Shown: piece by piece, positions 2,304 through 46,918 of the stretch | Position numbering within the stretch: position 1 is the first letter of the stretch | How the letters are laid out: every line of letters starts with the position of its first letter | Origin: a virus | Length of the DNA stretch: 52,489 nt | Direction: 5' to 3' (one strand) | IMG/VR virus record: IMGVR_UViG_3300018466_000002 | Location: 1-52,489 of that record | The notes under the pieces: generated by a model | Seen by the model: only the letters and a program-made list of their open reading frames with translations | What the model was told of the DNA's origin: nothing | Databases searched by the model: none | Made by a program: the position numbers and the translations under genes

Positions 2304-2860
2304 TACCCCGCGATGAGGGTCGATGCCCACCCTCGCAACTCGTCAGCGTTCACGAGGATCTCGTCAGCGCACTTCGCCATCAACTCCGGTTCTACGCGAT
2401 CAAGGCGCGCTGGAACGTGGCACCCGTCGAGATCACCGCACGCGCCGCAAGGTCTGTGGCGATAGAGGGTGTGACCGAACAGACGCACGGCATCATCAGC
2501 ATCAGGAAGCGGAACGCCGTGAGGAAATAGCACAGCAGTCCGCTTACCAGCGCCGACACTCCACCCCAACTCAAGGTGCGCGGAACTTCCGCACGGAAGG
2601 ACGAGCAGGCACACATCCGCAGCGCGCAGGGCGTCCATGTCTCGTCGGAATCCTTCCTCGGCCACATCATGCCGAAGCGCGGTACGGTACGCGTCAGGGC
2701 GCCACGCCTGCCACTGCGGGTCCACGTCAGACCACGCGAAGCCGCGCACGCCCGGCTCCGGTTCGCGAAAGTCGTATACGTCGTGACCTAACTCGCGCAG
2801 GAGTTCCACCACGCCGATCTGCCAAGGGTTCCGCCACGAAGAAGCTACGTAGATTCGCAT
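2282..2860 (-). CDS. Nucleoside 2-deoxyribosyltransferase-like protein, 192 aa
   Basis: The protein begins MRIYVASSWRNP, a typical start of phage deoxyribosyltransferase-like proteins, and has the later signature MDALRAADVCLLVLPCG followed by SAHLELGW, where the Glu matches the catalytic nucleophile. Such enzymes exchange bases on deoxynucleosides or hydrolyse nucleotides, a salvage or DNA-modification role. Residues near 150 hold a small C-x2-C-x4-C cluster. The start at 2860 lies 7 nt after TACAAT. It is a single-gene minus-strand insertion between plus-strand tail genes and overlaps the 1590 gene tail-to-tail by 22 bp. Confidence 0.8.
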   Translation of the reverse strand: MRIYVASSWRNPWQIGVVELLRELGHDVYDFREPEPGVRGFAWSDVDPQWQAWRPDAYRTALRHDVAEEGFRRDMDALRAADVCLLVLPCGSSAHLELGWSVGAGKRTAVLFPHGVPLPDADDAVRLFGHTLYRHRPCGACGDLDGCHVPARLDRVEPELMAKCADEILVNADELRGWASTLIAGYHTSTNT

Positions 2861-2867
2861 GCGACGC

Positions 2868-2873
2868 ATTGTA
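2868..2873 (-). promoter_or_regulatory. Extended -10 TACAAT, leaderless promoter
   Basis: Minus strand TGTTACAAT, GCGTCGC, then ATG at 2860. TACAATGCGTCGCATG is identical to the sites at 1546-1561 and 38866-38881. Confidence 0.75.
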
Positions 2874-2901
2874 ACACACGCCATCATGCGAAGATACTCC
2901 C

Positions 2902-5007: not shown

Positions 5008-5237
5008 CGATCCGCGACGATGTTCTCCAGCTTCCCCGCGACTCTGGAGATTTGATCGTGAAGGCGCCGAAGACTGTTCGCGGTTGCGGACTCCGCAGTC
5101 GACCCGTACGCCAACTCGGAGAAAGGTCCCCACGCGTATTCAGCTAGCCATTCCGTCGTCGGCGTAACCTGCATCGTGCTGCGGTAGCGACGGATCAGCG
5201 TCGCATGCTTCTGCAGTTTGGCCATGTCTACTTGCAT
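4986..5237 (-). CDS. Hypothetical protein, 83 aa
   Basis: A short basic, helical protein (MQVDMAKLQKHATLIRRYRS at the N-terminus) that I do not recognise. The ATG at 5237 follows TACAAT by 7 nt on the minus strand. Like its neighbours at 1234 and 2282 it stands alone between two plus-strand tail genes and overlaps the upstream tail gene tail-to-tail by 22 bp, so it behaves as an independently expressed moron-like gene. Confidence 0.65.
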   Translation of the reverse strand: MQVDMAKLQKHATLIRRYRSTMQVTPTTEWLAEYAWGPFSELAYGSTAESATANSLRRLHDQISRVAGKLENIVADRHPNSGE

Positions 5238-5244
5238 GCGACGT

Positions 5245-5250
5245 ATTGTA
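5245..5250 (-). promoter_or_regulatory. Extended -10 TACAAT, leaderless promoter
   Basis: Minus strand TGTTACAAT, then ACGTCGC and the ATG at 5237; the plus-strand side holds GCGAAGATACTCCC and the GTG at 5279. Confidence 0.7.
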
Positions 5251-5278
5251 ACACATCCACCCATGCGAAGATACTCCC

Positions 5279-30822: not shown

Positions 30823-31062
30823 ATGAAACTGCGCCTGAAGAAAGACCTCGTCATCCCGGCCGGAACGGTCATGAGTTCGGACGGCGTGCCCGCGAAGACC
30901 GTGCGCAACCCGCTCGGGAACGTGATGCATGATCTGGAATTCGGGGCAAATGCCACCGGACGCCTGTACATCGGGCACGAGGTGGGTGATCCCGGCTTCG
31001 ATGAGTGGTTCGAGCAGGTCGTACCTGAGGGGTGGGAGCCTCCGAAACGCCACGAACCGTAA
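30823..31062 (+). CDS. Hypothetical protein, 79 aa
   Basis: A short beta/alpha protein (LRLKKDLVIPAGTVMSSDGV, LYIGHEVGDPGFDEWFEQ) resembling other small phage proteins without known role. Leaderless start; terminator 50 nt downstream. Confidence 0.7.
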   Translation: MKLRLKKDLVIPAGTVMSSDGVPAKTVRNPLGNVMHDLEFGANATGRLYIGHEVGDPGFDEWFEQVVPEGWEPPKRHEP

Positions 31063-44483: not shown

Positions 44484-44599
44484 GGATTCCCACGGCGAGA
44501 CATTGCGACTGTCACCATTGCCACACGCAATGCGCGTGCGCCGAGTGTGTTGCGGCCAAACGCCGCTGCCGGACCTGTCAACTAGGCGGACCGGTGTAG
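44480..44599 (+). CDS. Cys/His-rich mini zinc protein, 39 aa
   Basis: The 39-residue product (RIPTARHCDCHHCHTQCACA, then ECVAAKRRCRTCQ) has eight Cys in about 25 residues, enough for two small zinc sites. GTGA overlap with the preceding gene supports translation. Confidence 0.6.
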   Translation: MRIPTARHCDCHHCHTQCACAECVAAKRRCRTCQLGGPV

Positions 44600-44602
44600 C
44601 AT
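44597..44602 (+). promoter_or_regulatory. -10 element TAGCAT, leaderless promoter
   Basis: TGTAGCAT, six bases, GTG at 44609. Confidence 0.55.
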
Positions 44603-44608
44603 CTCCGC

Positions 44609-45142
44609 GTGGCCACGTTCACGCTGCAATACCAACTCGGCGAAGTCTCCCATCTGCTCACGATGGTTGAGACGCGCGCCGACGATCCCTCGGACCTGAT
44701 GGCGGATCACCTCCTGCTGCTGATCCGGTCGACGCAACTCAACTTTGAGGAGCAGGGGCGCCCAGTTCCATTCGCTGAACTCGCACCCTCAACAGAACGG
44801 CGCCGGTTCGCCAAGGGCATGAAGGGCAAGGGAGCCAAAGCGCTCGGCTCTCTCGCCGTGCTCGGGTCCACTCAGATCCTGCGCGACACCGGCCTACTCA
44901 TGCAGTCGCTCGGAGCGGGAGCGAGCGGACCATTCGAAGCGGCGGACGGATTCGGCGAGTCGGACAAGTTCACGGCGGTGCTCGGGACGAACAGGCCGGG
45001 CGCCGATGCGCTGCAAGTGGGATACGCGCCGAACAATCTCCCCTCCCGCGAGTACGTGCTCTTTCAGGAGCAGGACGAGACGGACCTTCTGCGAATGACC
45101 GAGGATTGGATGATGGGGACGGGGCCGTACGCGGAAGTGTGA
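44609..45142 (+). CDS. Virion morphogenesis protein, Mu gpG/tail-completion-like, 177 aa
   Basis: The sequence QILRDTGLLMQSLGAG is the common DTG-x-L segment of gpG-like proteins. N-terminal helices and a C-terminal NNLPSREYVLF part also fit. They act at the head-tail interface. GTG start, leaderless. Its stop codon is part of the promoter that drives the structured RNA. Confidence 0.7.
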   Translation: MATFTLQYQLGEVSHLLTMVETRADDPSDLMADHLLLLIRSTQLNFEEQGRPVPFAELAPSTERRRFAKGMKGKGAKALGSLAVLGSTQILRDTGLLMQSLGAGASGPFEAADGFGESDKFTAVLGTNRPGADALQVGYAPNNLPSREYVLFQEQDETDLLRMTEDWMMGTGPYAEV

Positions 45143-45148
45143 TACAAT
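45143..45148 (+). promoter_or_regulatory. Extended -10 TACAAT driving the structured RNA
   Basis: TGATACAATGCGCGACACG: the motif is complete, but ACG stands at the start position and no coding frame follows. GTGATA and TATCAC flank the site as an inverted repeat. Confidence 0.65.
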
Positions 45149-45784
45149 GCGCGACACGTTATCACAGCGAGGGTGCGGAACACGTAACCTGCCCGTGCAG
45201 CCCGTGACCACAACACCCTGTCACCATGCCAAGGCGCGTATACACATTAGTGCGACGCCGAACCGGAAAGGGGCCGGTAGCCAGCGCGGAGCGAGTCGGT
45301 TGCGCAGTGAGGCACAGAACCTGCCGAGCAGTCCGAGGGAAACGCGAAGGACGGGCCAGCAACGGGCACTGCTGGCCGAGCAGTTCGTAACGAAATGACC
45401 CGCCGTACACGGACGAGAGAGTTGGACGCGGCGGGTCAGGGTGAACGGTTCCGCGAGGGGCCGTTCACTGGTTTCTGTGAACCCTGACCGGCTATCGGGC
45501 AACCGAAACGCCGAGCGTGATAGTGAGGCCACGCTGGAAAGGGAGTCGGCGCCTCCATCGCGAGCCGACTCCCTCTTTGACAACTGATTCGGGAACGTGC
45601 GGCGACAGCGCACGCGGCGCCCGGTGATGAGCAGCCGGCGGTTTTGTGAAGACGTTTTCCGTCGTCAAGCCCTCAAACCTCAGGCCACCGAAAGCGGGGA
45701 GACGCTGCGAAAATAATCCCCACTGACACGGGCGGACTCGTTCCGCCCCGTACGCGCCCGGATCAGTTGTGAGGAGAGTGTTCT

Positions 45785-45873
45785 GGACGAGCCTCCGGTT
45801 GAGGTGGCGGGCACGCGACCCGCGCAAAGACAAAGCGGCAAGATGTACGGCGGTTCGACTCCGCCCCTCGTCC
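45785..45873 (+). other. tRNA-like domain within the structured RNA
   Basis: GGACGAG (45785-45791) pairs with CTCGTCC (45867-45873). Between them are a 5-bp stem with 7-nt loop (GCGGG/CCCGC, 45807-45823; loop CACGCGA lacks U33) and a perfect T-arm GGCGG-TTCGACT-CCGCC at 45849-45865. No normal D-arm, so not a standard tRNA. Confidence 0.5.
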
Positions 45874-45874
45874 C

Positions 45875-45896
45875 CGTTCGTTGAAAACAGGTTCAG
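45875..45896 (+). repeat. Imperfect repeat of the 24-nt stem arm, copy 1
   Basis: CGTTCGTTGAAAACAGGTTC resembles 46062-46083 with one substitution and one missing G, and could compete for the same 3' arm. Confidence 0.7.
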
Positions 45897-45909
45897 ACCA
45901 GCGGAGGTC

Positions 45910-45933
45910 GCGGGTTCGAATCCCGCCCCGTCG
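45910..45933 (+). other. Second canonical T-arm with acceptor-like 3' strand
   Basis: GCGGG-TTCGAAT-CCCGC is a textbook T stem-loop, followed by CCCGTCG where an acceptor 3' strand would lie; no exact 5' partner is nearby. Confidence 0.55.
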
Positions 45934-45962
45934 TGCGAGGCCCACATGCCGGGCTAATCCTC

Positions 45963-45986
45963 GACGAGGTAGCGCAGGGGTAGCGC
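45963..45986 (+). other. 5' tRNA half (acceptor strand, T8-A9, D-arm)
   Basis: GACGAGG, TA, then GCGC-AGGGGTA-GCGC. The first seven bases pair perfectly with CCTCGTC at 45866-45872, which follows the upstream T-arm, i.e. in permuted order. Confidence 0.5.
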
Positions 45987-46061
45987 GCCGAACCACGGCC
46001 CGCAAGGGAGCGTGGAGTGCACCGGACGGCGGAGTGGGCATGTCGCTCCGTCCGTTCCGCT

Positions 46062-46085
46062 CGTTCGTTCAAAACAGGGTTCAGG
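46062..46085 (+). repeat. 24-nt stem arm, copy 2
   Basis: Pairs with 46175-46198 over all 24 positions (22 Watson-Crick, 2 U-G). Confidence 0.8.
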
Positions 46086-46201
46086 TAAGCGCGCCGGTGA
46101 AGGCGGCAGTGCGGTCCGCAGTCGGCTCCGGTGAGGACGACACGGACTGGAAACCGTCAGAAGCCGGATGAACCCCTGAACCCTGTTTTGAGCGAGCGCG
46201 G

Positions 46202-46207
46202 TACACT
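46202..46207 (+). promoter_or_regulatory. -10 element TACACT before the 46217 gene
   Basis: TACACT 9 nt before GTG 46217, directly after the terminal RNA stem. Confidence 0.45.
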
Positions 46208-46216
46208 TCTCCCCGC

Positions 46217-46918
46217 GTGACCATCCCCGTAACCTTCTCGGCACCGCCTGACGAAACGTTCCCTGAGCTCAACGGGTACGTGCCGTCACTTGAGGACTCC
46301 ATCCGCAAGGGCGTGTGGCTCATGCTCCGAGCGGATGACGTGAACAGGAAGGCGCACAGCAACGATCCGGAAGATGCGGCGGCGGGCGTGAACATCTATC
46401 AGGGGCGGCCCGCCTACGATCCCGACCGCCTCTCCATCAAGCGTCTCCCGTGTCAGGTCGTGGACATCGCGCCGGCAGGAAGCGACTTCCGGTATCTGAC
46501 CGCGAACGCGGGCGAGCGGATCATCATCGTCGGCGTCTCCTTGCTCAACGCTGCAAGCACCGCCCTGCTCCCCGAGGATGCATCGGTGACGACGGAGGCC
46601 ATGCTGTCCAGAGTGCGATCTATCCTGATGCGTGGCACGTTGTGGAAGTCGGACATGTCGACGAACAAAGGACGGGTGATTGATCCCTTCTTTGCGCCGC
46701 GCAACGAGGACGGCACGTACGCCGCTCCGCCGCCTTCCGCATACCTGAACATGGAGGGGCCGGACATCAGGCCATCGTCCCCGCGCTACATTCAGAATCG
46801 CTACGTGCGAACGGCGAAGGAGGCGGAGGATCTGCACCCCGTCCGCGATTTCGCTGTATCCTTCGGTTGGCGCGCGGCTTACAGGATCATCGTCGGAGAC
46901 CGCGACACGCCACGTTAA
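46217..46918 (+). CDS. Tail terminator / minor tail protein candidate, 233 aa
   Basis: A mixed alpha/beta protein of 233 residues lying between connector genes and the tail tube, where tail terminator proteins are found. No decisive motif seen (RIIIVGVSLLNAASTALLPE, SFGWRAAYRIIVGDRD). GTG start. Confidence 0.6.
   Translation: MTIPVTFSAPPDETFPELNGYVPSLEDSIRKGVWLMLRADDVNRKAHSNDPEDAAAGVNIYQGRPAYDPDRLSIKRLPCQVVDIAPAGSDFRYLTANAGERIIIVGVSLLNAASTALLPEDASVTTEAMLSRVRSILMRGTLWKSDMSTNKGRVIDPFFAPRNEDGTYAAPPPSAYLNMEGPDIRPSSPRYIQNRYVRTAKEAEDLHPVRDFAVSFGWRAAYRIIVGDRDTPR

What the first reader, a model, noticed from the sequence alone, without database searches (positions are those of the whole stretch)
45156..46198. 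About 1 kb of ornate structured RNA inside the virion gene cluster
No plausible protein gene is seen, yet the interval is full of perfect helices, including a 24-bp closing stem with two U-G pairs and a 13-bp helix joining segments 163 nt apart with a U-G pair. GNRA-capped hairpins and a likely pseudoknot add to this. U-G pairs and GNRA loops point to RNA, not DNA palindromes. It has its own phage promoter and ends where the next promoter begins. GOLLD and ROOL are large phage-borne RNAs of this style, often near tRNAs; this may be one of them or a new class.
Basis: partly seen in the sequence, partly recalled or inferred. Interest (0 to 1): 0.93.

Follow-up and report, generated by a model that had tools for sequence, protein, structure and literature searches.

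The report
Phage RNA with reordered tRNA mimic
A 1-kb non-coding stretch among the particle genes of an unclassified phage has its own promoter and holds a tRNA look-alike whose parts are in swapped order, the hallmark of bacterial Y RNAs that partner with the Ro60 protein, although no Ro60 gene is seen on this contig.

Summary
The interval (45143-46216) is non-coding. It starts at a promoter motif the phage uses repeatedly, contains the helices reported, and is not GOLLD, ROOL or OLE. This is the layout of bacterial Y RNAs (YrlA). A model built from 17 other viral modules, window excluded, finds it as the only significant match in the window (57 bits, E=1e-12); a model of modules beside phage Ro60 genes gives 57 bits, E=2e-16. 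Six isolated phages with Ro-like genes carry such modules nearby. Best reading: a Y-RNA-like tRNA-mimic scaffold RNA. It is not filed as YrlA: it scores below the Rfam cut-off (as do all Ro-linked phage copies I tested) and the contig has no detectable Ro60. Nothing outside the module has a relative, so the rest of the 1 kb stays unproven. In passing: DUF7873, an uncharacterised phage protein, is followed within 800 nt by a permuted tRNA-like module in 78 of 80 loci, and 42 of 51 distinct strict modules carry an encoded CCA. I found no description of that pair.

The parts
45137..45148 (+). Promoter motif GTGTGATACAAT (extended -10 type), overlapping the stop codon of the upstream neck gene
   Evidence: 7 matches to the motif (up to 1 mismatch) in the window against 0.5 expected, 0/100 shuffles; same motif upstream of the ORFs at 30823 and 43848
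45155..46198 (+). Inferred non-coding transcript; neither end has been measured
   Evidence: between the promoter motif and the -10-like site of the next gene; ORFs inside score non-coding
45396..45438 (+). Hairpin with an 11-bp perfect stem (one G-U)
   Evidence: within the only stretch of unusual folding energy, 45361-45600
45431..45492 (+). Nested hairpin GCGGGTCAGGGT..ACCCTGACCGGC enclosing a 13-bp hairpin
45580..45770 (+). Domain closed by a 14-bp long-range helix (45580-45593 with 45757-45770, one G-U, 163 nt between)
45849..45872 (+). Second T-arm (GGCGG TTCGACT CCGCC) followed by CCTCGTC, which is perfectly complementary to GACGAGG at 45963-45969; possible degenerate second module or alternative partner
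   Evidence: 7 of 7 pairs; model R3 weak match 45840-45894, 15.2 bits, E=0.02
45875..45896 (+). Repeat CGTTCGTTGAAAACAGGTTCAG, a near copy of the 5' arm at 46062
   Evidence: sequence itself; no exact viral match to the shared motif
45890..45994 (+). Permuted tRNA-like module: GGUU/AACC and CGG/CCG basal helices, variable loop AGGUC, T-arm, acceptor hairpin, UA, D-arm
   Evidence: R1 57.3 bits E=1.2e-12, R2 57.0 bits E=2e-16, R3 50.3 bits E=1.3e-11, the best match of each in the window by far; Rfam YrlA 31.8 bits, E=1.3e-4
45910..45926 (+). T-arm GCGGG TTCGAAT CCCGC
45927..45969 (+). Acceptor-like hairpin: CCCGTCG (45927-45933) pairs with CGACG(A)GG (45962-45969), one bulged A; no CCA after the 3' strand
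   Evidence: such complementarity occurs in 0.8% of random tRNA pairs
45970..45986 (+). U8-A9 and canonical D-arm GCGC AGGGGTA GCGC
45999..46008 (+). GNRA hairpin CCC GCAA GGG
46062..46198 (+). Long arm with a 24-bp basal stem (46062-46085 with 46175-46198, two G-U)
   Evidence: pairing probability near 1

Best explanation
The interval encodes a phage Y-RNA-like scaffold RNA. It is transcribed from its own promoter. Its module at 45890-45994 folds like the elbow and acceptor half of a tRNA although the pieces are in permuted order (T-arm first, D-arm last, joined through a closed acceptor hairpin), so it has no anticodon loop and no free CCA end and should not decode or be charged. Inferred: as in YrlA, this tRNA mimic is the effector-binding end, seen by tRNA-binding proteins such as TruB, Dus enzymes and the exonuclease PNPase, while the long helical arms hold a Ro60-type ring protein supplied by the host or by phage DNA missing from this contig. 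The RNA would then tether or gate a ring protein and a nuclease to act on damaged RNA during infection. Shown: non-coding, promoter motif, permuted module, and its recurrence in phages next to Ro60-like genes. Inferred: transcription as one ~1-kb RNA, the protein partners and the function.
For: The tRNA parts are all of tRNA length but permuted. Three covariance models made without the window find it as their clear best match there, and the Ro-linked model scores higher (57.0 bits) than the DUF7873-linked one (50.3). In IMG/VR contigs L027 (two loci) and L095 the module is followed about 1 kb downstream by a TROVE/Ro60 protein gene, and in L108 by a DUF2828/DUF7788 protein of the same PHROG. 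Six isolated phages with Ro-like genes (Trax, BRock, Atuin, JustBecause, CcrColossus, Usaquen) carry modules of 41-72 bits near that gene. The best phage BLAST match of the window RNA, a T-arm in Gordonia phage Trax at 57369, lies about 200 nt upstream of Trax's Ro-like gene at 57598. YrlA's architecture and Rsr-PNPase role are described in PMC8394870.
Against: No Ro60, DUF2828 or DUF7873 gene is detectable on the 52-kb contig. Rfam YrlA scores 31.8 against a cut-off of 69. The acceptor stem has a bulge and the anticodon-stem remnant is 3 bp. In thermodynamic folding of the whole interval the D-arm is mostly not formed. YrlA RNAs are 90-150 nt, not 1 kb, and nothing outside the module has relatives.
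Confidence: 0.6

Rival explanations
1. A large structured phage RNA that works without Ro60. The permuted tRNA mimic recruits host tRNA-binding or tRNA-modifying proteins, and the other ~900 nt form an independent scaffold or assembly, as GOLLD and ROOL do.
For: No Ro60-type gene on the contig; the RNA is much longer than YrlA and has its own strong arms; the location in the head-tail cluster differs from the Ro-linked loci seen.
Against: The only shared part is the Y-RNA-type module, and it matches Ro-linked modules slightly better than the others. The contig may be incomplete, so absence of Ro60 is weak evidence.
Confidence: 0.22
2. Remains of a tandem tRNA array: the T-arm of one dead tRNA followed by the D-arm of the next, with no function.
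For: Tandem tRNAs also score on the permuted models. A second T-arm lies 60 nt upstream and the acceptor stem is imperfect.
Against: No tRNA is found in the window and there is no D-arm or anticodon arm before the T-arm, nor a T-arm after the D-arm. The acceptor halves are complementary in the permuted sense, which random tRNA pairs show in only 0.4-0.8% of cases. A promoter motif sits at the start of the interval.
Confidence: 0.1
3. A relative of the DUF7873-linked RNA, a permuted tRNA-like RNA with an encoded CCA end that may mature into a two-piece acceptor-bearing molecule like permuted tmRNA.
For: Same permuted fold; R3 gives 50.3 bits.
Against: No DUF7873 in the window and no CCA after the acceptor strand, which 42 of 51 of those RNAs have. 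The window also lacks the conserved 5' segment seen in an alignment of nine of them (by inspection).
Confidence: 0.04
4. A structured leader or cis-regulatory region for the gene at 46217.
For: It lies directly upstream on the same strand.
Against: That gene has its own -10-like site and appears leaderless, and 1 kb would be extreme for a leader.
Confidence: 0.04

Closest known systems
YrlA bacterial Y RNA (Rfam RF02553)
   Same: T-arm, closed acceptor hairpin and D-arm in that permuted order with tRNA-like sizes; significant local match (31.8 bits, E=1.3e-4)
   Different: below the family cut-off of 69 bits; no Ro60/rsr gene on the contig; interval ~1 kb instead of 90-150 nt; acceptor bulge and long acceptor loop
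Y-RNA-like modules beside Ro-like genes in phages (Trax, BRock, Atuin, JustBecause, CcrColossus, Usaquen; IMG/VR L027, L095, L108)
   Same: same module (covariance model R2, 57.0 bits in the window); YrlA scores of about 25-50 bits there, also below the cut-off
   Different: the Ro-like gene is nearby there and absent here; no similarity outside the module
DUF7873-linked permuted tRNA-like RNA (found here)
   Same: same permuted fold (R3, 50.3 bits)
   Different: window has no DUF7873 and no encoded CCA; sequence outside the module is unrelated
GOLLD / ROOL / OLE
   Same: large structured phage or bacterial RNA with no known protein product
   Different: no sequence-structure match even at E up to 10
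Permuted (two-piece) tmRNA
   Same: permuted order of acceptor strands
   Different: canonical base-paired D-arm, no CCA, no credible tag ORF; tmRNA model 18.6 bits against a cut-off of 47

Membership tests
YrlA (RF02553) | permuted tRNA-like module: T-arm, acceptor hairpin, D-arm | tested here: met
YrlA (RF02553) | score at or above the Rfam gathering cut-off (69 bits) | tested here: not met
   31.8 bits; Ro-linked phage copies also fail, about 25-50 bits
YrlA (RF02553) | Ro60/Rsr (TROVE) gene nearby | tested here: not met
   none on the 52-kb contig; the contig may be incomplete
YrlA (RF02553) | Ro-binding basal stem formed by the RNA ends | tested here: inconclusive
   the model matches only positions 23-88 of 114; GGUU/AACC and the 24-bp arm are candidates without comparative support
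YrlA (RF02553) | 90-150 nt long | not testable with these tools
   transcript ends unknown; the non-coding interval is 1.07 kb
YrlA (RF02553) | binds Ro60 and PNPase | not testable with these tools
   needs biochemistry
GOLLD / ROOL / OLE | match to the Rfam covariance model | tested here: not met
tmRNA (standard or permuted) | tmRNA model score, tag ORF, unpaired D-loop | tested here: not met
   18.6 bits of 47 needed; ARAGORN none by default and only poor hits at a relaxed threshold; D-arm is base-paired
tRNA | anticodon arm and contiguous cloverleaf | tested here: not met
   0 tRNAs
DUF7873-linked permuted RNA | DUF7873 gene directly upstream | tested here: not met
DUF7873-linked permuted RNA | encoded N-CCA after the acceptor 3' strand | tested here: not met
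   window has TGCG after CCCGTCG; 42 of 51 family members have N-CCA

The most novel reading that the evidence does not exclude
The whole ~1-kb transcript is the first seen member of a new family of large phage RNAs that carry a permuted tRNA mimic and work without Ro60, for example as an RNA scaffold that captures host tRNA-binding proteins while virions are made.
Probability: 0.22. Interest if true: 0.8.

Novelty: new variant of a known kind. Interest (0 to 1): 0.66.

Why it matters
Phage Ro60 and Y RNAs are known, but what they do for a phage is not. A Y-RNA-type tRNA mimic in a 1-kb non-coding stretch, without a Ro60 gene in sight and inside the head-tail cluster, suggests that the tRNA-mimic part may be used beyond Ro60. 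Following it led to a stronger general result: an uncharacterised protein family, DUF7873, is paired with a permuted tRNA-like module in 78 of 80 viral loci, most with an encoded CCA end. That makes a testable protein-RNA pair in isolated phages of Rhizobium, Klebsiella, Arthrobacter and Gordonia.

Tried and rejected
GOLLD, ROOL, OLE and every other Rfam family at the curated cut-off: no match. Close relatives of this phage: three viral scans with its proteins, phage-database tblastn with four proteins and a genome scan found none, apart from one distant terminase match, so covariation could not be tested for the interval itself. Exact-pattern scans for the module with the window's own T-arm and for the repeat GTTCGTTNAAAACAGG found nothing; a scan with the GCGC D-arm found no second permuted module. 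Permuted group I intron: considered because permuted halves suggested it, but evalue-mode Rfam searches of the interval and of eight related loci gave no group I match. Permuted tmRNA: rejected (see membership). Fold of the downstream 233-aa protein: model too poor to use (pLDDT 35). DUF7873 fold: confident model, no solved relative.

Full report
Observation. The gap between the neck-protein gene (44609-45142, PHROG 26) and the 233-aa gene at 46217 is 1,074 bases. All longer ORFs in it score negative on the phage's own codon usage, while 18 real genes score positive. Counted blindly, the density of long stems is high but not unique (4 against a mean of 1.07 in other tiles, two of which also reach 4), and the folding energy is unusual only over 45361-45600. 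The motif GTGTGATACAAT at 45137 is one of seven matches in the window where 0.5 are expected. So: non-coding, with a promoter motif, and structured in parts.

What it is. Rfam has no match at curated cut-offs and nothing for GOLLD or ROOL even at E up to 10, but the permissive search gives YrlA, the bacterial Y RNA, at 45902-45993 (31.8 bits, E=1.3e-4). Reading the sequence shows why. From 45902: CGG, a 5-nt variable loop AGGTC, T-arm GCGGG-TTCGAAT-CCCGC, acceptor strand CCCGTCG, a 28-nt loop, acceptor strand CGACG(A)GG, the two linker bases TA, D-arm GCGC-AGGGGTA-GCGC, G, CCG. That is a tRNA body with every element at its proper length but in permuted order. Outside it, GGUU (45890-45893) can pair with AACC (45991-45994).

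Relatives. After removing ordinary tandem tRNAs with ARAGORN and requiring acceptor complementarity, about 17 contigs remained whose halves are permuted. A generic search for such modules in 1.0 Mb of these loci gave 53 hits and none in reversed sequence; some of the 53 are tandem tRNAs. Model R1, from 17 modules without the window, matches the window at 45900-45992 with 57.3 bits, E=1.2e-12; nothing else there is significant. The T-arm, acceptor and D-arm pairs in that alignment were selected for, but the anticodon-stem helix was not, and it still pairs in 73% of cells with changes on both sides at all five pairs. Tandem tRNAs can also score on R1, so the bit score alone does not exclude a dead tRNA array; the absence of any other tRNA part and the permuted acceptor complementarity (0.4-0.8% in random tRNA pairs) do most of that work.

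Partners. Two kinds of gene sit next to these modules. In L027 (two loci) and L095 a TROVE/Ro60 protein gene follows, and in L108 a DUF2828/DUF7788 protein; all belong to PHROG 850, RNA-binding protein. Isolated phages show the same: Trax, BRock, Atuin, JustBecause, CcrColossus and Usaquen carry one to three modules near their Ro-like gene; a seventh, the crAss-like phage PhiCrAssBcn19, gave none. In these the Rfam YrlA score is about 25-50 bits, so the window's 31.8 is typical for a phage Y RNA even though it fails the curated cut-off. The best BLAST match of the window RNA in the phage collection is such a T-arm, about 200 nt upstream of the Ro-like gene of Trax. The second partner is DUF7873, a family without known function: of 80 DUF7873 loci from IMG/VR, 61 have a strict permuted module within 800 nt downstream on the same strand and 78 have one by model or strict search, leaving out one that overlaps ordinary tRNAs; 42 of 51 distinct strict modules carry N-CCA right after the acceptor strand. 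I found no paper that names DUF7873.

Where the window falls. It has neither partner gene and no CCA. A model from Ro-linked modules scores 57.0 bits (E=2e-16), one from DUF7873-linked modules 50.3 bits. So it is closer to the Ro-linked, Y-RNA type, by a small margin. Nothing else in the 1 kb has a relative, so I cannot show that the rest belongs to the same RNA.

How it most likely works (inferred). By analogy with YrlA, whose basal stem tethers the Ro60-type ring protein and whose tRNA-like end is modified by TruB and DusA and binds PNPase (PMC8394870), the module is the effector end and the long arms are the protein-binding end. The partner would be a host Ro60 or a gene outside this contig. 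Steps shown: non-coding interval, promoter motif, module, recurrence beside Ro60 genes. Steps not shown: transcription, length of the RNA, partners, function.

Verdict. New variant of a known kind: works like a Y RNA; not filed as YrlA because the curated score and the neighbouring Ro60 gene were tested and not met.

Noticed in passing
L137-L216 and named phages L222, L223, L225-L227, L229: DUF7873 (PF25283) genes are followed within 800 nt by a permuted tRNA-like module in 78 of 80 viral loci; 42 of 51 distinct strict modules have an encoded N-CCA after the acceptor strand, suggesting a processed acceptor end. Where I read the annotation of isolated phages, the module is not annotated as RNA.
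   Followed up: partly
L137 family, about 175 nt upstream of the module: Conserved 5' segment ATCCCATAGGGGATAGACTNAGA in DUF7873-linked RNAs, with covarying outer helices in the related loci L110, L064 and L058 and a G+C-rich hairpin at the 3' end; a defined RNA of roughly 350-450 nt.
   Followed up: partly
L030 2723-2961 and L199 3298-3595: Two permuted tRNA-like modules in tandem; the first in L030 has a leucine-type D-arm and a UACG-capped stem in place of the anticodon loop.
   Followed up: no
L004 5852-6605: A GOLLD RNA (207 bits) lies about 220 nt upstream of a permuted tRNA-like module and ordinary tRNAs.
   Followed up: no
window 2857-2901 and 5234-5278: Two large ORFs (701 and 501 aa) share a nearly identical 45-nt upstream sequence GCATGCGACGYATTGTAACACA..GCGAAGATACTCCC before a GTG start.
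   Followed up: no
window 44593-44609 and 46202-46217: Genes at 44609 and 46217 have a -10-like TANNNT box about 10 nt before a GTG start, as in leaderless transcripts.
   Followed up: no
DUF7873 model m8f219ea838f0: Confidently predicted fold (pLDDT 88.5) without a significant match among solved structures.
   Followed up: partly
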